From a virus, in IMG/VR virus record IMGVR_UViG_3300034190_002401, positions 21,459 to 85,458 of that record: DNA of 64,000 nucleotides, one strand, 5' to 3'. Below the pieces are notes generated by a model, which was not told the origin of the DNA, did not search any database, and was given only the letters and a program-made list of their open reading frames with translations. Shown piece after piece: positions 22,133 to 62,702 of the stretch. How positions within the stretch are numbered: the first letter of the stretch is position 1; each line of letters begins with the position of its first letter. The translations under genes and the position numbers were made by a program.

Positions 22133-22678
22133 TTAGAGTCTCTGTGGAGGACTCCTTCGCTCGATTGGCGAGTTTTGTCGATTCACCTGTGATAGAATCT
22201 CATTTATCGCATTCCGGTAGTAGTCTGTGGCTTCCGGTGGTGCTTCTCTACGTGGAGGACTTGGGTCTGGCTTCTTGTCCATGGGGTTGGGCATCTCGAA
22301 CAGGTCTGGCCTTTCTCTCTTGAGTTGCTCTTGGTCTATGTGTAGACCTGCATTAAGTTTTTCTTCCAAGTCTTCTCTTTCTGGAGAATGGTCGAGGTAG
22401 TCATATTTAGACTCAAAAAAGTCCCCTCTATGCATCTTTTCTTCATCCGGTATAAGTGGTAGACCATATTCGTCAAAGTTCTCGTTTTCTCTGCTCAGAG
22501 GCCTGCCCATTGCGTCTATGAGAGGCTCGCCCGGCTCGAACTTGAGGAACTCCCATGCTTTCTTCATGGCTTTCTCGTCTGGTTTCGAGGTTTCAGTAGG
22601 CTTCTTGGGCATCTTAGGGCCGACAGCGATAACCAGTGTCATCCCTGCTTTCTTACCCTTGTCCTTCATACATATCAC
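22133..22678 (-). CDS. Hypothetical acidic late protein with AWEFLK motif
   Basis: 181 residues, read from GTG 22678 overlapping the upstream stop; an ATG at 22669 is an alternative. The motif MKKAWEFLKF appears near residue 40. The middle is Asp/Glu-rich and the end Pro/Arg-rich. No family recognised. Confidence 0.65.
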   Translation of the reverse strand: MICMKDKGKKAGMTLVIAVGPKMPKKPTETSKPDEKAMKKAWEFLKFEPGEPLIDAMGRPLSRENENFDEYGLPLIPDEEKMHRGDFFESKYDYLDHSPEREDLEEKLNAGLHIDQEQLKRERPDLFEMPNPMDKKPDPSPPRREAPPEATDYYRNAINEILSQVNRQNSPIERRSPPQRL

Positions 22679-23220
22679 TGGTTATTTCTCTGCTCTGGTA
22701 TCTGAGGGGCGGAAACTCCTATTTTTGATGGTGCGCTGTCCCTACCGGTCATACCGGTGTTCATGGCATTCATGTCCCTCATGTGCTCTACAAAGTACTC
22801 TTGAGCGATATCAGAACTCAATTGGTGCTCATCATCATCCATTCCCTGCTCTACCGCAGACAAACCGGGGATGATGCCTAGTTTGTTCATGTAGTGATGT
22901 AGTATCTGCTGCTCCTTCTCGTTCCTAGGCTTGTGGTCATCGAAGATAGTGCCACCATGTGCGTCGAAGTCAGCCTGAGCCTGCTCGAACTCATCCAATT
23001 CAGGACCATCCGAGTAGTCCTCGTACTCATCTCTGTACGATTTCCTGAGTGTGTTGTAGTCGTATTGTAGTTTGAGGGCGGCCTTTCTCATGACATAGGC
23101 CTTCTTCATCTCGCCGCCGCAGCCCATCTTCTGCATGCAGTGTGCTTTTTTCATGCCGCATCCGGGGCACTTCTCATTGTCTGCTTTCAATAGAGTCCAT
23201 GCTGTGTCAAATGCGCTCAT
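22675..23220 (-). CDS. Late protein with N-terminal FDTAWTLLKA motif and zinc site
   Basis: 181 residues. It opens with MSAFDTAWTLLKA, then CPGCGMKKAHCMQKMGCGG (about 18-36), a probable zinc site. The remainder is acidic and helical. The arrangement of motif plus zinc site is shared with the gene at 24240-24518. Six bases separate it from the upstream gene. Not recognised as a known family. Confidence 0.7.
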   Translation of the reverse strand: MSAFDTAWTLLKADNEKCPGCGMKKAHCMQKMGCGGEMKKAYVMRKAALKLQYDYNTLRKSYRDEYEDYSDGPELDEFEQAQADFDAHGGTIFDDHKPRNEKEQQILHHYMNKLGIIPGLSAVEQGMDDDEHQLSSDIAQEYFVEHMRDMNAMNTGMTGRDSAPSKIGVSAPQIPEQRNNQ

Positions 23221-24134: not shown

Positions 24135-24254
24135 ATGGGTATCAGCGAAGTTATTTTTGACAAGTTTAGAATGGTAGTGATTGATTTACTAATCAAAATA
24201 GGACTAACAGGTGTGGTTCTGCTGTTCGGAGTCAGTTGGTTACTGTCCCTCTGA
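24135..24254 (+). CDS. Small single-span membrane protein on the plus strand
   Basis: 39 residues: a charged N-terminus then one hydrophobic helix (about 13-38, for example KIGLTGVVLLFG). Second plus-strand gene in the late block, with the same arrangement as 23520-23870: divergent start and an end overlapping the convergent gene (here by 15 bases). Small holin-like or membrane-disturbing proteins look like this, but size alone does not prove it. Confidence 0.45.
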   Translation: MGISEVIFDKFRMVVIDLLIKIGLTGVVLLFGVSWLLSL

Positions 24255-24518
24255 CCTTTTCTGCGCTTCCATGGCCTGCCTTGCCCTCTCAATCATGGAT
24301 TTCTGGCCTTCTGAGTGAGTATTTCCGTCTCCCATGACGTTTCTCATGCTCATTCCGCTGGGTGCGCCACAGTTTTCGCACTGTGGGTTGCCGGGATTGA
24401 GACCCTGCTTGCAACTCTGGCAGAACATCGAGTCCATCGCCCGTGCGCCCATCGGGTCGTCAGGAGATGTGGGCATGATGTTTTTCAGAACAGCCCAAGA
24501 CTTGTCGAAAGCGCCCAT
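24240..24518 (-). CDS. Small late protein with FDKSWAVLK motif and zinc ribbon
   Basis: 92 residues from ATG 24518; an earlier TTG is rejected because a TTTTATT box lies 27 bases before this ATG. It opens GAFDKSWAVLKN; at about 34-55 it has CQSC and CENCG, a zinc ribbon. The tail is a charged helix. The combination parallels 22675-23220. Confidence 0.7.
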   Translation of the reverse strand: MGAFDKSWAVLKNIMPTSPDDPMGARAMDSMFCQSCKQGLNPGNPQCENCGAPSGMSMRNVMGDGNTHSEGQKSMIERARQAMEAQKRSEGQ

Positions 24519-24710
24519 GTCCGAGCGCAAGGGGGGTCAGAATAAAATCATTGCTGGTTTTTAGGTGCAGTCGATGCCATCTGCGTAGAAACATGAAAGA
24601 GTGTTGTCAATTTCGGAACAGGTTGAGAGATGACAAACAGATGACACCGACCACGATGTATGATTACATGCATTCTACTTGTATGTTCTTACTCTCTTGG
24701 TCGAAAGGAT

Positions 24711-25640
24711 TTATGTCACAGCCACCTTGTCTTGCCAATCGAAAAGGCGATTGTCTATATTTCTTGAAACCGTATTTCTGTCACCGAACATCATACGTTG
24801 AGTTGCCTCATCATATTCCGGCTCATCCCCCATGAAGACAGGTGCGGACTCCTCGTCTCCGACATGCCAAGCCGATAGGTACGGGGTATCGCCCATTTGA
24901 GCCATTATCGCTTGATTTAGTTTATTCAACTCAGGTACTTGCCTAGCAGCAGAATCCAGTTTCTCGTTGAATCTCTGCCAAACGGGGGGACGACTAATCC
25001 TTGAACTTCGCTCAGGATGCAAGACGTAATCCACACCAGCATTGGCGAGCAACTCATTCAAATTGTTCATTCTCATGTGGCCCGGAGAAGAAGTGTATGC
25101 GCTTTCCAGTTGCTGTGCCCTCTCCATGGCACTTGCTGGCGATATGTTCGACCCCTCTGCCAATCTCTGTACGACAGGCGATTCGATATCATTCAACGGC
25201 CCTCCATGGTCAAACGCCCTCCTACCGAGATTCAACACGGAATCGTCGTTGAATGACACTGGCATCTCGAAGCGACCTATCCGCCTTGGCTTCGCGGGGT
25301 CTCTCCATGCTTCGGAGTATTGCTGGGCGGTTATCCTCTGTGGGCTAAAGTACCTCTTTGGGTATTTGTCGCCTATCTTGAGTTCAGGCTCATCTTTCGA
25401 CATAGACCTAAAGACGCTAGGGGTTCTAGCAGTCGGATACGTCGGTCTGTTGGTGATGTCCCGCATGGCTTCCCTGAGTATCCTACTGTATCTGTCCCTG
25501 TCGCTATCACTGGCAAGACTAGCGAGAAGGCCATAATCCACAGCCTTCAGCAGAGACCACGCTTGGTCGAAGGGCGTGCTGACAGGCGACTTGCCGATGC
25601 GTGCAGCCATGCTTTTACCGACAACGCCTCCTGCCAACAC
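24711..25640 (-). CDS. Hypothetical late protein with FDQAWSLLKA motif, first gene of the minus block
   Basis: 309 residues from GTG 25640; an ATG 10 codons later is the alternative. A TATA-like ATCAATAAT lies about 25 bases before the GTG, consistent with a leaderless GTG. The shared motif PFDQAWSLLKAVD is near residue 25. The rest is soluble and polar, with Arg/Asp/Ser-rich stretches; no family recognised. A 192-base gap separates it from the next gene; I see nothing convincing in the gap except the promoter of the following gene. Confidence 0.7.
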   Translation of the reverse strand: MLAGGVVGKSMAARIGKSPVSTPFDQAWSLLKAVDYGLLASLASDSDRDRYSRILREAMRDITNRPTYPTARTPSVFRSMSKDEPELKIGDKYPKRYFSPQRITAQQYSEAWRDPAKPRRIGRFEMPVSFNDDSVLNLGRRAFDHGGPLNDIESPVVQRLAEGSNISPASAMERAQQLESAYTSSPGHMRMNNLNELLANAGVDYVLHPERSSRISRPPVWQRFNEKLDSAARQVPELNKLNQAIMAQMGDTPYLSAWHVGDEESAPVFMGDEPEYDEATQRMMFGDRNTVSRNIDNRLFDWQDKVAVT

Positions 25641-57003: not shown

Positions 57004-58404
57004 ATGCGTCACTACTCAGAGTACCAAGCAGTGCAGAAGTTTCCTTTGTTCAAGGGGTACTTGGAGCACTTTAGACAGACATCAATGGAAAACGACATAC
57101 CCGGTATGCTTTCCTTCTTCTTCCTACAAGGACAGGTTGCTGTTCCTTTTGTGAGGATACCTTGGGGTTCATCACATCTAGACCCACGTGTGCACGTGTT
57201 CTGGATTCAACCAAGCAGGTCTGGTAAGTCTGTGTCTTGGGAGTTCATAGGTGACATCTGTAGAGAGGCCGAGATACCCACTGAGATGTACACCACAGGG
57301 ACTGACGCTGCTCTGATAGGTGGATGGGAAGAAGAGATTGTTGATGGTGAAACAGTCAAGCATCTCAAAGAGGGACTGTTAGATGGGCGTAAGGCACTCA
57401 ACTTCGATGAGGGTTCAATCATACTCAACCCCAACAAGCACAGTCAGGAGACTGTGTTGTATCTACAGTCTGCCTGCAACCCCGTAGGTAGTAACAACAA
57501 CGTACTTGTCAAGCATACCAAAGCAGGGAGGATAGAGACTGAGTCTCTGGTTTCGATGTGGATTACCACTTTCCCACCGAAGGGTGTCAAGGAGTACGTT
57601 CTGACCAAAGGTATCTTCCAAAGGGTTCTGCTGTATTGGGCAGACTGGGATACAGACAAGAGGATGGGTGTGAGCATGAAGAGGATGGAGATGGCATTCA
57701 AGAAGATACCCAAGTTGTCTGTCGAGCATGACGACATAGTGGATTACTTCAAAGGGTTGACTAAGAGGGTGAGAGATAGATTACTCAACATCAGTGAGAC
57801 TTCCTTCTCAGACTGGGACACTATGAATAGATACGACCAAGAGGAACTGCTACAGTCTCATATGCATCAGATGTTCACAGCAGGAGATGACTTCTACGCT
57901 GCTGCGTATGACTCCATAGAAGACTACTACTCTCTACTAGACGGTCTAGGGCCGGGTATCGGTGATGTGGTTGCTTCATTCATGCCTGCTGTTGAGAATT
58001 ACACAGTCATCTTCGCAACGCACATGGCCATGCTAGACGAGTCATGGGAAGTGACAGGAGAGCACGTTGACATGGCTAAGGACATTCTATACGACCTGAC
58101 TAAGAATCTGATTCTATGGTTAGAAGACGAGGTTGAGGTTGGATACAAGAAGACAGAGGTGTCTGAGTACAAGAAGAGATTTGCAATAGCGTATCAGAAC
58201 ACAGATGCTGTAGACTTCGATGACTCCAGAGGAGCAGGTTGGCACAGGAAGAACAACGTGATACAGACGTACATGAAACTCAATTCAGTCACTAGAGGCA
58301 CTGGGTGGAATCACTTTGGTAAGTACGCTAAAGATATGTTTGACACCGTAAAGGAGAACAAGGTAGTGTATCTCCGAATGAAAGAGGGCGCTAACGATGA
58401 GTGA
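57004..58404 (+). CDS. P-loop ATPase, replicative helicase candidate
   Basis: 466 residues from ATG 57004. Walker A QPSRSGKS (about 74), Walker B-like ALNFDEGS (about 137), and later TKGIFQRVLLY with a possible arginine finger. The overall look is DUF3987/viral helicase-like, and no other replicative helicase is seen in this window, so it is the best candidate. It may instead be a packaging- or repair-type ATPase. Confidence 0.6.
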   Translation: MRHYSEYQAVQKFPLFKGYLEHFRQTSMENDIPGMLSFFFLQGQVAVPFVRIPWGSSHLDPRVHVFWIQPSRSGKSVSWEFIGDICREAEIPTEMYTTGTDAALIGGWEEEIVDGETVKHLKEGLLDGRKALNFDEGSIILNPNKHSQETVLYLQSACNPVGSNNNVLVKHTKAGRIETESLVSMWITTFPPKGVKEYVLTKGIFQRVLLYWADWDTDKRMGVSMKRMEMAFKKIPKLSVEHDDIVDYFKGLTKRVRDRLLNISETSFSDWDTMNRYDQEELLQSHMHQMFTAGDDFYAAAYDSIEDYYSLLDGLGPGIGDVVASFMPAVENYTVIFATHMAMLDESWEVTGEHVDMAKDILYDLTKNLILWLEDEVEVGYKKTEVSEYKKRFAIAYQNTDAVDFDDSRGAGWHRKNNVIQTYMKLNSVTRGTGWNHFGKYAKDMFDTVKENKVVYLRMKEGANDE

Positions 58405-59014
58405 CATACTTTCCTTAGACATAGAGACCGAGAACTACTCTTGGGACATTGGTGGGTGGAACAACATGAACCTATTCAAGACAAGTGTAATTGCAACTTG
58501 GGATGGTACTCAAGGTACTTTGTTTAGTAATAAAAATATACAATTAGAAAACGTGAATGTACTTCCATTACATGCATCAGATATAGGTAATCATATATCA
58601 GAACATATAGAGAAAGGTGGTAAACTACTAGGTCACAATATAATTGGTTTTGACCTACCAGTTATCAGAGATTCGTTAGACTGCTGGGCTGCTGGAGATG
58701 TAATGTCAAAGAGTTCAGATACAATAATAGATACCAAGAACCTAGTTTCAAAAGCATCTAAACTATTATCAGATAGTATAGTGACATCGTTAGATGTACT
58801 TTCAAAATGCACTTTGAAAGAAGGTAAGATAATGCAGAGTGTAGATGCACCTGAACAATGGGCTTTGGGTAAATACAATGAGGTAGCGGAGTACTGCCTT
58901 AAAGATGCACAACTAACATACGAGTTGTACAAGTACGGCGCTGAATATGGTGTAGTAAAGTCACTTTCCTTAGATACAGGAAAAGAGATAGAGATAGAGG
59001 TGGATTGGAAATGA
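58397..59014 (+). CDS. DEDD-family 3'-5' exonuclease
   Basis: 205 residues. ExoI SLDIETEN (6-13), ExoII HNIIGFDLPVI (about 79-89), ExoIII YCLKDAQLTYELY (about 166-178): a complete DnaQ-like set. The middle (58500-58900) is clearly AT-richer than its neighbours, suggesting a recent gain from another genome. It may proofread, degrade host DNA or process RNA. Overlaps the helicase-like gene by eight bases. Confidence 0.85.
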   Translation: MSDILSLDIETENYSWDIGGWNNMNLFKTSVIATWDGTQGTLFSNKNIQLENVNVLPLHASDIGNHISEHIEKGGKLLGHNIIGFDLPVIRDSLDCWAAGDVMSKSSDTIIDTKNLVSKASKLLSDSIVTSLDVLSKCTLKEGKIMQSVDAPEQWALGKYNEVAEYCLKDAQLTYELYKYGAEYGVVKSLSLDTGKEIEIEVDWK

Positions 59015-60510
59015 CCGATAATGACAAAACAAATAACGCACAAGTGATGAATATACGGGCAGCAAAGGCTATTGTCGAAACTGTACGTACTACCTTAGGA
59101 CCGATGGGTATGGACAAAATGATGGTGGACGGTGCTGGAAACGTGATAGTGACCAACGACGGTGCTACCATCCTACGTGAGTTAGACGTAGCACATCCCG
59201 GTGGTAAGATGATGATAGAGATATCAAAGACACAGGAGACGATATGCTATGACGGTACTACCAGCACAGTAGTGTTGGCCGGTCAACTACTCTCCAACAG
59301 TGAGATGCTTTTCGAGAAGGGACTACATCCCAATGTGATATGCAGGGGATATCGTGAAGCATCGCAGATGGCGATAGACTACTTGAACAGAGAAGTGTCA
59401 TTGGAAACAGGTAATGAGTTCTTGCACGACATAGCCAAAACTGCAATCACCGGTAAGACCGTAGAGGCTGCTACTGATATCGTAAGCACCCTTTGTGTGG
59501 ATGCAGTCATGGCTGCTGGTGATGTGGACAAGGTCAGGGTAGTCAGTCTACCCGGTGGTAGCATCGAGGAATCTTACTTGTTCAATGGTGTGATTGTGAG
59601 TAAGGACTTCGTACTAGACTACGACTTGGATGACGAGACCAACATCCTTCTACTCAACACAGGGCTTGAGGAGGAGAAGAGCAAGGAGAACGTACAGGTT
59701 CAATTGAACGCAGCAGATTACTCTCAGTTCCAGAAGTCAGGTAGGGACAACCTGCTTGAGCGTGCACAACACATAGTGACGAAGATGGAGGGGAAGGGTG
59801 TTGTGTTCGTCAGAGATGGTGCACATGACCACGTCTGCGCTTATCTAAGGAAGAACGGCATAGGTGTGATAAGAAGAGTACCTGAGAGTGTGATGAAAGC
59901 ACTAAGAGGATGCCTAGGTATCAGTGTAGCGCAGACACCAGAAGAACTCGAAGAGGCAGCCTTCGTCAAAATATCGAGGCAGAAGCACAATGACGTGCAG
60001 TACATTTTCGTACATTCAATCGTTGAAAGTGACCAGTCCACTCTGGTTCTAAGAGGGGCAACACAATCTACCTTAGACGAGGTGGAGAGAGGATTCGATG
60101 ACGCATTGGGTGTAGTCAGCCTAGTCAAGGAAGACGGAAAGATAGTCGCTGGTGGTGGTTCATCATTCGTGGCTATGGCTTCCTATCTGAGGAATCATGG
60201 TGCTAGTGTAGGCGGAAGGCCTCAGATGGCTATAGAGGCCTTTGCAGACGCTCTAGAGATTATTCCTGCTACCATAGCAGAGAATGCGGGTCACGACCCA
60301 CTCGACGTGGTGCTGGCTATGAGACACGAAATACAAAGTGGAAATCTACACTACGGTCCTAATGTTACTGATGGTGGAATTACCAACATGAAAGACGCTG
60401 GTGTATTCGAGCCTACCAAACTAATCAAGCAGGCTTTGCTTAGTGCGACAGAAGTCACTACTGCCCTACTAAGGATAGATGATATCGTTGGTAGGAGACC
60501 TGTAGAATAA
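59011..60510 (+). CDS. Group II chaperonin (thermosome subunit)
   Basis: 499 residues from ATG 59011. Clear motifs: TLGPMGMDKM, NDGATIL, YDGTTSTVVLAG (usually GDGTT, Gly to Tyr), GGGSSFVAMA, NAGHDPLDVV, NVTDGGITNM and the end TALLRIDDI. It is slightly shorter than cellular thermosomes (about 540), lacking the C-terminal Gly-rich tail. It folds proteins in an ATP-driven double ring, probably viral capsid or replication proteins. Magroviruses are known to encode one. Overlaps the exonuclease gene by four bases. Confidence 0.95.
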   Translation: MTDNDKTNNAQVMNIRAAKAIVETVRTTLGPMGMDKMMVDGAGNVIVTNDGATILRELDVAHPGGKMMIEISKTQETICYDGTTSTVVLAGQLLSNSEMLFEKGLHPNVICRGYREASQMAIDYLNREVSLETGNEFLHDIAKTAITGKTVEAATDIVSTLCVDAVMAAGDVDKVRVVSLPGGSIEESYLFNGVIVSKDFVLDYDLDDETNILLLNTGLEEEKSKENVQVQLNAADYSQFQKSGRDNLLERAQHIVTKMEGKGVVFVRDGAHDHVCAYLRKNGIGVIRRVPESVMKALRGCLGISVAQTPEELEEAAFVKISRQKHNDVQYIFVHSIVESDQSTLVLRGATQSTLDEVERGFDDALGVVSLVKEDGKIVAGGGSSFVAMASYLRNHGASVGGRPQMAIEAFADALEIIPATIAENAGHDPLDVVLAMRHEIQSGNLHYGPNVTDGGITNMKDAGVFEPTKLIKQALLSATEVTTALLRIDDIVGRRPVE

Positions 60511-60686
60511 TGGGAAGACTTCTAGACAAACTAAACGTCACTTGTCGTGCTTGTGGTTACAAGCATATCCCAAGAAGGCTGAATGCACGTTATCAAGATG
60601 CTGAAAAAAGGAGAATCAATCTTTGGCAGTGTAAGCAATGTGGTCACTTTTGGCAGGATTCGGTATACAAAAAGACGAAACAATAA
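60510..60686 (+). CDS. Small zinc-ribbon protein
   Basis: 58 residues, start overlapping the chaperonin stop. CRACGYKHI and CKQCGHFW form a zinc ribbon; otherwise basic. Unknown role. Confidence 0.65.
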   Translation: MGRLLDKLNVTCRACGYKHIPRRLNARYQDAEKRRINLWQCKQCGHFWQDSVYKKTKQ

Positions 60687-60715
60687 TTTACCTTCGGTGT
60701 AGAATCTACACCAGT
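60682..60715 (+). promoter_or_regulatory. TATA box plus hairpin before a small gene
   Basis: AATAATTTA at about 60683-60691 is about 29 bases before ATG 60716, and the perfect stem GGTGTAG AAT CTACACC (60696-60712) sits between, as in the hairpin-dense early region. Confidence 0.45.
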
Positions 60716-61006
60716 ATGTTATGGCGATGGTTTGTTCGTAAACTCATGAGAGTAATGGGACATGTCTACGTGTGGTTAGACAAGCGTGTAAAATACTCTG
60801 AAGATGAGGTCAAAGAAGTACTTGGTCTGAAGATAGACAAAGACCTCCAAACCTCCTCAAGATACGAATTATGTCAACTAATAGAAAAAGAGTTCAAAGT
60901 AGACAAAGATTCATTCTGGCATCTACACAGCACTCAGAAGATAAGATTCGCAGCACAGCAGATTCGTGAGATGAAGAAGCCGAGTAAGTTCGAGTTGGGG
61001 TATTGA
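60716..61006 (+). CDS. Small hypothetical protein
   Basis: 96 residues from ATG 60716, chosen over an upstream start by promoter spacing. A hydrophobic, Trp/Arg-rich beginning (MLWRWFVRKLMRVMGHVYVW) then a charged helical domain. Not recognised. Confidence 0.55.
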   Translation: MLWRWFVRKLMRVMGHVYVWLDKRVKYSEDEVKEVLGLKIDKDLQTSSRYELCQLIEKEFKVDKDSFWHLHSTQKIRFAAQQIREMKKPSKFELGY

Positions 61007-61070: not shown

Positions 61071-61145
61071 ATGAAAAGATATAGTAAGACTGCAATGTTT
61101 ATCAGATGTATGAATGAGATTTTTGAGGATTGGGACGAAGAATGA
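61071..61145 (+). CDS. Possible 24-residue peptide
   Basis: ATG 61071 preceded by GGAGGTG and ended by a stop overlapping the next start. Charged and helical. Kept because of the good ribosome site; very short. Confidence 0.35.
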   Translation: MKRYSKTAMFIRCMNEIFEDWDEE

Positions 61146-61279
61146 TTGTTGACCAGCGTGTGATAGACAGTATAGTCAACGACATGGAGATAGAGATACC
61201 TTTAGGATTCCCTTTGCTTCTACTGGCTACGACAGGATTGCTCATCTATTTTGTATGGTCTAGTAGGGATAGTGAATGA
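61142..61279 (+). CDS. 45-residue single-span membrane protein
   Basis: A polar N-terminus and one hydrophobic helix (about 21-39, LGFPLLLLATTGLLIYFVW). Overlaps the previous stop and the next start. Unknown role. Confidence 0.6.
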   Translation: MIVDQRVIDSIVNDMEIEIPLGFPLLLLATTGLLIYFVWSSRDSE

Positions 61280-62127
61280 ATGCCATATCTCTGTACGAAG
61301 TGAGTCCTAGAGATGGTTTACAGGGTTTACCAAGAACCATCCCTTTGAGGAAAAAAGTCAAACTAATCAAGAAACTAAAGGGTGCAGGTATAGAAGACAT
61401 AGAAGTGGGAAGCCTAGTGCACCCCTCTATACTACCAATGAGAGAAAGTGGTAAACTGTATAGAAAGACAGGCGGAGACTTACTGGTGGTGAATGAGAAG
61501 GGCTTCGATAGAGCGATAGAACTAGGTCTTGAAAGTGTGAATGTAGTGATAAGCCCCGACAACGACTTCAACAAAACAAATCAAAAAAATACATATCAGA
61601 ATATAATGAGTGTATATCAAAATAAATGTAAAGATATACCAATAAATAGATTGTACATTAGTTGTGCATTTAGTAAGGGTGTATCTAAAAAAGCCGTTTT
61701 AGAGTGTGTTAAGTGGGGAAAAGACATATCAAAATGCATTGTACTATGTGATACAGATAGTAATGCAACTGTCAAAAGCATTGCATCTTTGTGTAAGGAA
61801 GCAAAAAAGATTACACACAATCTAAGCATACACCTACACGTGAATGAAGATAGTACAGAATACATCAAAGCCGCCTATGACTCAGGTATCAGACAGTTCG
61901 ACTGTTCTGTGGGGGGGTTAGGTGGTTGCTTCTCTGTGGATTCAGCGCAAAGTAATCTGAGAACAGAGTCATTGGTATCATGGGCATTGACCAATGACAT
62001 ACCAATAGAGGAGAACATACACGTGGACAGATTAACCTCAACAGGTGAGTATGCATACAACTTAGCATATTCATACAGTCAAACTAGACTGGAGAAGATT
62101 ATGTCTAAGATAGGAATCTTGCTTTAG
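61276..62127 (+). CDS. HMG-CoA lyase-like TIM-barrel protein
   Basis: 283 residues, normal length for the family. Motifs: YEVSPRDGLQG (7-17), IEDIEVGSLVHPS (about 39-51), ISCAFSKG, VLCDTDSNAT, SIHLHVNEDS and FDCSVGGLGGC (about 211-221). The acids and His residues expected to bind metal and acyl-CoA are present (Asp in SPRDG, HLH). Cellular versions split HMG-CoA or related acyl-CoA. This would be an unusual metabolic gene in a virus. The middle (61560-61900) is strongly AT-rich compared with the window, suggesting recent acquisition. Last plus-strand gene before convergence. Confidence 0.82.
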   Translation: MNAISLYEVSPRDGLQGLPRTIPLRKKVKLIKKLKGAGIEDIEVGSLVHPSILPMRESGKLYRKTGGDLLVVNEKGFDRAIELGLESVNVVISPDNDFNKTNQKNTYQNIMSVYQNKCKDIPINRLYISCAFSKGVSKKAVLECVKWGKDISKCIVLCDTDSNATVKSIASLCKEAKKITHNLSIHLHVNEDSTEYIKAAYDSGIRQFDCSVGGLGGCFSVDSAQSNLRTESLVSWALTNDIPIEENIHVDRLTSTGEYAYNLAYSYSQTRLEKIMSKIGILL

Positions 62128-62147: not shown

Positions 62148-62702
62148 TTACTCAGACCACTCCCAGCCACCTACGTTATCACAGTAAGGGCCGAACTTCT
62201 CTCTCATTCTTGATGAGTAGTCATCTATCCTCTCCTCATGAGTGAGCCATGTATCCAACCAAACCACGTCCCAACTGCTTCCTTCGGGTATCTCCCACGT
62301 ATTGATGTCCGCATGGATTATAGTGAATCTGTCATCCTTAGCACAGTGCTCCCAAACCAAGTCAATGACATCCTGCTCCTTCTCGATTATTGTTACGCTG
62401 GTCACATCATCAGAGTCAAGCAGTGGTATGTGTATCATACCAATACCGAGGCCACCTAGCAACACATCCCCCGACATCCTCTCCACGAGCCAGTCATGCT
62501 CACTATACTCCTGCTCCGTGTCCTGCATTATATTGAGCCAAGACTCACCGAACTTCCTGTATAGGACGGTGTAGTTACCCTCTGCTATGTTGCGAAAGTT
62601 CACGTAGTTCAACCAAGAAGGCTCACCAGTGGTAGCGGTGCACTGCTCGACCTTGTAGTCCCCACTCTCGCCATCGGGTATACCCGTTACTTCCCATCTC
62701 AT
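62148..62702 (-). CDS. Methyltransferase/spermidine-synthase-like protein
   Basis: 184 residues. Rossmann pattern VLLGGLGIGMIHIPLL (about 80-95, SAM- or nucleotide-binding loop), VTIIEKEQDVIDL (acidic residue after strand 2), FTIIHADINTW and WDVVWLDTW. Closest in feel to class I methyltransferases or spermidine synthases. Overlaps the upstream fibre gene by four bases, so it belongs to the virion block; it might modify a host or fibre molecule. Confidence 0.65.
   Translation of the reverse strand: MRWEVTGIPDGESGDYKVEQCTATTGEPSWLNYVNFRNIAEGNYTVLYRKFGESWLNIMQDTEQEYSEHDWLVERMSGDVLLGGLGIGMIHIPLLDSDDVTSVTIIEKEQDVIDLVWEHCAKDDRFTIIHADINTWEIPEGSSWDVVWLDTWLTHEERIDDYSSRMREKFGPYCDNVGGWEWSE

What the first reader, a model, noticed from the sequence alone, without database searches (positions are those of the whole stretch)
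61276..62127. HMG-CoA lyase-like gene, AT-rich, at the end of the early block
All family motifs are present and codon use in the middle is much AT-richer than neighbours, so it looks newly acquired. A viral acyl-CoA lyase could affect host leucine or lipid (isoprenoid) metabolism; archaeal lipids depend on HMG-CoA.
Basis: partly seen in the sequence, partly recalled or inferred. Interest (0 to 1): 0.66.

Follow-up and report, generated by a model that had tools for sequence, protein, structure and literature searches.

The report
HMG-CoA lyase gene of archaeal viruses
The gene encodes a divergent but catalytically intact HMG-CoA lyase in a tailed virus of marine archaea (magrovirus type); such genes are already reported in this virus group, and it is an old, common viral gene rather than a fresh acquisition.

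Summary
The ORF is real (61276-62127, 283 aa) and encodes an HMGL-fold protein: Pfam HMGL-like is above its cutoff, and the AlphaFold2 model (pLDDT 91) matches solved HMG-CoA lyases first. The eight residues named as catalytic or Mg-binding in human HMG-CoA lyase are all present. Two family motifs have changed: the signature GLGGCP[YF] reads GLGGCFS, and HxH-[D/N]-T reads HLHVN. The AT-rich middle is real (lowest GC of the window) but is shared by relatives 79-93% identical (dS 0.5-0.7, dN/dS 0.06-0.12 against the window), so the gene is not newly acquired. The contig looks like a magrovirus. HMG-CoA lyase in magroviruses is published (ICTV Aoguangviridae 2023; Xu 2023). New here: an IMG/VR signature scan reached its limit at 119 hits, nearly all viral HMGLs; all 71 representatives keep the eight residues and form one clade apart from 14 sampled cellular-type enzymes. 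The gene occurs in 11 of 13 large thermosome-bearing viral contigs; a sister virus lacks it at this junction. Best reading: a Mg-dependent lyase cleaving HMG-CoA to acetyl-CoA and acetoacetate during infection. Substrate and purpose are inferred, and host homologues could not be sampled.

The parts
61276..62127 (+). HMG-CoA lyase-like CDS, 283 aa (DRE-TIM metallolyase fold)
61309..61314 (+). codons of R12-D13 (human R41 catalytic, D42 Mg ligand)
   Evidence: coordinates by arithmetic from the ATG
61831..61839 (+). codons of H186-L-H188 (human H233, H235, Mg ligands)
   Evidence: coordinates by arithmetic from the ATG
61900..61929 (+). codons of DCSVGGLGGC, loop ending in the catalytic Cys218 (human C266); followed by FS instead of P[YF]
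61558..61860 (+). AT-rich middle of the gene (codons 95-195), lowest GC of the window; shared by all close relatives
61142..61279 (+). 45-aa ORF with a hydrophobic, probably membrane-spanning stretch; its stop overlaps the HMGL start (ATGA), conserved in 5 of 6 clade loci examined
60638..61006 (+). 122-aa ORF, no confident family, conserved upstream of HMGL in the window clade
59005..60510 (+). viral group II chaperonin (thermosome) in the block ERCC4 - 470-aa ORF - exonuclease-like - thermosome that precedes HMGL
62148..62702 (-). methyltransferase-like gene, first gene of the convergent block; also found downstream of thermosome in sister L154, which has no HMGL between

Best explanation
The ORF is a functional viral HMG-CoA lyase of a magrovirus-like tailed archaeal virus. 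The TIM-barrel enzyme binds a divalent metal through D13, H186, H188 and N227, positions (S)-HMG-CoA with R12, E43 and Y127, and uses C218 on the mobile loop to cleave it into acetyl-CoA and acetoacetate. Shown: the gene, the fold by prediction, the active-site set, purifying selection, viral monophyly in this sample, and a conserved place at the end of the early block in its clade. Inferred: the substrate, and that the virus gains by pulling carbon from leucine catabolism or the HMG-CoA pool into acetyl-CoA, which would also lower HMG-CoA for archaeal isoprenoid lipids.
For: Human catalytic R41, E72, Y167, C266 and Mg ligands D42, N275, H233, H235 (PMC6941031) map to R12, E43, Y127, C218, D13, N227, H186, H188, each conserved in 71 of 71 viral sequences. 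The RxYxS strand holding Y167 is shared with human, Pseudomonas, Brucella and Bacillus HMG-CoA lyases but not with the 6nds-type lyases, which read NGTVAT. The 14 best PDB fold matches are all HMG-CoA lyases (TM 0.77-0.84), ahead of synthases. dN/dS 0.06-0.12.
Against: Only 120.9 bits against the 246-bit NCBIfam cutoff. In all viral members S/T201 is replaced by V and the [D/N]-T after HxH, universal in the 14 cellular-type sequences, is absent; the window clade further lost CP[YF]. No metabolic partner gene was seen beside it. No expression or activity data.
Confidence: 0.66

Rival explanations
1. It is an acyl-CoA lyase of the same fold with a different substrate (another 3-hydroxy-acyl-CoA such as a longer 3-alkyl or 3-methylmalyl-type CoA ester), the pocket having been remodelled in the viral clade.
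For: S/T201V and the lost [D/N]-T in all viral sequences, CFS loop in the window clade; score under the HMG-CoA lyase cutoff; many bacterial genes named HMG-CoA lyase sit beside CoA-transferases and may act on other esters.
Against: Y167 and the RxYxS strand of the structurally characterised HMG-CoA lyases are invariant in viruses, unlike 6nds-type lyases.
Confidence: 0.22
2. The gene is a recent capture from a cell (host or bacterium), still with donor composition.
For: Lowest GC in the window, GC3 0.37; sister virus L154 lacks it at the same junction and in its whole 86.7-kb record.
Against: The same GC dip is present in relatives at 79-93% identity with dS 0.52-0.70; nested in a viral clade, SH-aLRT 100; across 71 viral members mean gene GC equals mean locus GC.
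Confidence: 0.06
3. A non-enzymatic or decaying relic of an HMGL.
For: Altered signature loop in the window clade.
Against: Catalytic and metal residues invariant in 71 of 71, dN/dS about 0.1 or less, intact frame in all full-length copies examined.
Confidence: 0.06

Closest known systems
HMG-CoA lyase of Aoguangviridae / magroviruses (ICTV profile PMC10768690; Xu et al. PMC10160649)
   Same: Same kind of gene in tailed viruses of marine Poseidoniales archaea with opposed replication and structural blocks
Human mitochondrial HMG-CoA lyase (2cw6, 3mp3, 3mp5)
   Same: TIM barrel; R41, D42, E72, Y167, H233, H235, C266, N275 all conserved; TM 0.77-0.84
   Different: 24% identity; loop after C266, the [D/N]-T after HxH and S201 differ; shorter
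Acinetobacter baumannii lyase 6nds (CoA and 3-methylmalate complex)
   Same: Best PDB hit by sequence and by fold E-value
   Different: NGTVAT instead of RxYxS, so Y167 is missing; separate branch in the tree
Klosneuvirus KNV1 HMGL-like protein (A0A1V0SKU2)
   Same: 282-aa HMGL fold in a virus, TM 0.83, 26% identity
   Different: Giant virus of eukaryotes, unrelated virus group
2-isopropylmalate / homocitrate synthases
   Same: Same DRE-TIM superfamily
   Different: No GLGGC catalytic-Cys loop, extra C-terminal domains; 13-19% identity by fold match

Membership tests
Pfam HMGL-like PF00682 (DRE-TIM metallolyases) | Score above the curated cutoff | tested here: met
   49.9 bits against 29, residues 4-256
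HMG-CoA lyase | Mg ligands D42, H233, H235, N275 | tested here: met
   D13, H186, H188, N227; 71 of 71 viral sequences (roles from PMC6941031)
HMG-CoA lyase | Catalytic R41, E72, Y167, C266 | tested here: met
   R12, E43, Y127, C218; 71 of 71
HMG-CoA lyase | Fold closest to HMG-CoA lyases rather than synthases | tested here: met
   Model pLDDT 91.3; first 14 PDB hits are HMG-CoA lyases
HMG-CoA lyase | Strict signature loop GLGGC-P-[YF] (diagnostic pattern) | tested here: not met
   GLGGCFS in the window clade; GLGGC with the catalytic Cys kept; 67 of 71 viral representatives keep P
HMG-CoA lyase | NCBIfam NF004283 curated cutoff (246 bits) | tested here: not met
   120.9 bits; hence 'HMGL-like, probably HMG-CoA lyase', not a curated member
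HMG-CoA lyase | Cleaves (S)-HMG-CoA to acetyl-CoA and acetoacetate | not testable with these tools
   Needs an enzyme assay
Isopropylmalate / homocitrate synthase | GIGxRxGN loop and C-terminal domain | tested here: not met
   Has GLGGC loop, 283 aa only; synthases are the outgroup in the tree
Magrovirales (host virus) | PolB, ERCC4 nuclease, chaperonin, tailed-virus terminase, two opposed gene blocks | tested here: met
   no MCP or PolB phylogeny was made, so the family within the order is open

The most novel reading that the evidence does not exclude
The viral clade is a virus-specific lyase subfamily with a remodelled pocket, kept across most magroviruses as a way to drain the host HMG-CoA pool and so switch off archaeal isoprenoid membrane synthesis during infection, rather than as a leucine-breakdown helper.
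Probability: 0.12. Interest if true: 0.75.

Novelty: new member of a known kind. Interest (0 to 1): 0.36.

Why it matters
HMG-CoA is the entry point of archaeal membrane lipids. A lyase for it that is widespread in viruses of abundant surface-ocean archaea, with an invariant active site, is more than a sporadic passenger gene and makes a direct test of viral control over archaeal lipid or acetyl-CoA metabolism possible. The gene as such is not new to science.

Tried and rejected
GenBank records ON649702 and OR863078 are not in the collections. Recombination of the AT-rich middle was considered: segment-wise nearest neighbours differ, but at only 32-52% identity this is inconclusive. Defence role: no PADLOC hit for the HMGL. 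A bacterial contaminant origin was rejected: the upstream gene order is shared by other viral contigs.

Full report
Observation. The ORF at 61276-62127 (+) is intact and encodes 283 aa. It matches Pfam HMGL-like over residues 4-256 and, among NCBIfam models, hydroxymethylglutaryl-CoA lyase best, though at half the curated score. Sequence searches of the PDB return HMG-CoA lyases only. The AlphaFold2 model from 71 viral homologues is confident (pLDDT 91.3, pTM 0.90) and its first 14 Foldseek matches in the PDB are HMG-CoA lyases, ahead of isopropylmalate and homocitrate synthases.

Active site. Using human numbering, the residues listed as most critical for catalysis (R41, E72, Y167, C266) and for Mg2+ binding (D42, N275, H233, H235) (PMC6941031) are R12, E43, Y127, C218, D13, N227, H186 and H188 here, and each is identical in all 71 viral sequences aligned. 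The strand RxYxS that carries Y167 is shared with the human, Pseudomonas, Brucella and Bacillus enzymes and differs from 6nds-type lyases (NGTVAT), which argues for HMG-CoA rather than a 3-methylmalyl-type substrate. Against a plain copy of the cellular enzyme: all viral sequences have V at the S/T201 position and lack the [D/N]-T that follows HxH in all 14 cellular-type sequences, and the window clade alone reads GLGGCFS instead of GLGGCP[YF].

Composition and age. The gene has GC 0.385 and its middle is the lowest-GC stretch of the window. All close relatives checked, 79-93% identical plus one identical copy, show the same dip. Pairwise against the window, dS is 0.52-0.70 and dN/dS 0.06-0.12. 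Across 71 viral HMGLs the gene's GC tracks the locus GC (mean difference -0.005). So the composition is an inherited peculiarity of this clade, not a sign of recent entry.

Setting. The window is 21459-85458 of an 85,458-bp IMG/VR virus record. It carries a group II chaperonin, PolB, a clamp-loader ATPase, an ERCC4 nuclease and a PD-(D/E)XK nuclease on the + strand and a terminase on the - strand, which matches the published magrovirus plan. Assignment to Magrovirales and a Poseidoniales host is inference from gene content. In relatives the order ERCC4, 470-aa ORF, exonuclease-like, thermosome is conserved. In the window clade a 122-aa ORF, a 45-aa hydrophobic ORF overlapping the HMGL start by ATGA (in five of six loci examined), and HMGL follow. 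In L154 (thermosome 74% identical) the thermosome is followed directly by the opposite-strand block including the same methyltransferase, with no HMGL, and none elsewhere in its 86.7-kb record. HMGL therefore entered this junction, or was lost from the sister, after that split.

Breadth. The pattern recruits by that signature, so invariance inside it (F, D, GLGGC) is built in; the other key residues are not in the pattern. Seventy-one representatives form one clade against 14 cellular-type and 4 synthase sequences (SH-aLRT 100, stem 1.08), with the window clade nested inside on a long branch. Among 45 thermosome-bearing viral records 18 have the gene, and 11 of 13 records of 70 kb or more do (8 of 10 without the three close kin of the window). 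In some of the other viruses it lies near portal or terminase genes or among accessory ORFs rather than beside the thermosome.

Function. Best reading: a Mg-dependent HMG-CoA lyase giving acetyl-CoA and acetoacetate. Two purposes are possible and not separable here: fuelling the infected cell by finishing leucine breakdown (the pathway named by Xu et al.), or lowering HMG-CoA for isoprenoid lipids; Poseidoniales are described as having a complete archaeal lipid pathway (PMC6461757). No partner enzyme beside the gene was seen that would decide.

Novelty. HMG-CoA lyase in magroviruses is published in the ICTV Aoguangviridae profile and in Xu et al. 2023. The main gap is the missing host sequences: a Poseidoniales clade could lie inside or beside the viral one.

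Noticed in passing
window 22678-23220 (-), 24243-24530 (-), 24714-25640 (-); L126, L038, L065, L015, L024, L124 and others: Many adjacent, otherwise different ORFs share an N-terminal tag of about 10 residues, F[DE].AW.[LIV]LK ('MTAFDQAWSLLKMP'). 142 of 1367 ORFs carry the AW..K core in residues 1-45 against 4 in residues 61-105. It looks like a sorting or virion-packaging signal; one literature search found no account of it. HMGL lacks it.
   Followed up: partly
window 61142-61279 (+): A 45-aa hydrophobic ORF overlaps the HMGL start codon (ATGA) and is conserved in 5 of 6 clade loci examined; in L008 a different small hydrophobic ORF takes its place.
   Followed up: partly
window 58451-58800 (+): The second-lowest GC region of the window lies in the exonuclease-like ORF 58397-59014 (GC 0.369, GC3 0.316), so HMGL is not the only AT-rich early gene.
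   Followed up: no
BFVD A0A1V0SKU2: Klosneuvirus, a giant virus of eukaryotes, also has an HMGL-like protein with a close predicted fold (TM 0.83).
   Followed up: no
L139 (CAKLQH020000001): A record named Acinetobacter phage MD-2021a (328 kb) carries a lyase annotated leuA next to a CoA-transferase and a transporter; the lyase is nearly identical to the 6nds enzyme of Acinetobacter baumannii, so the record probably holds bacterial chromosome.
   Followed up: no
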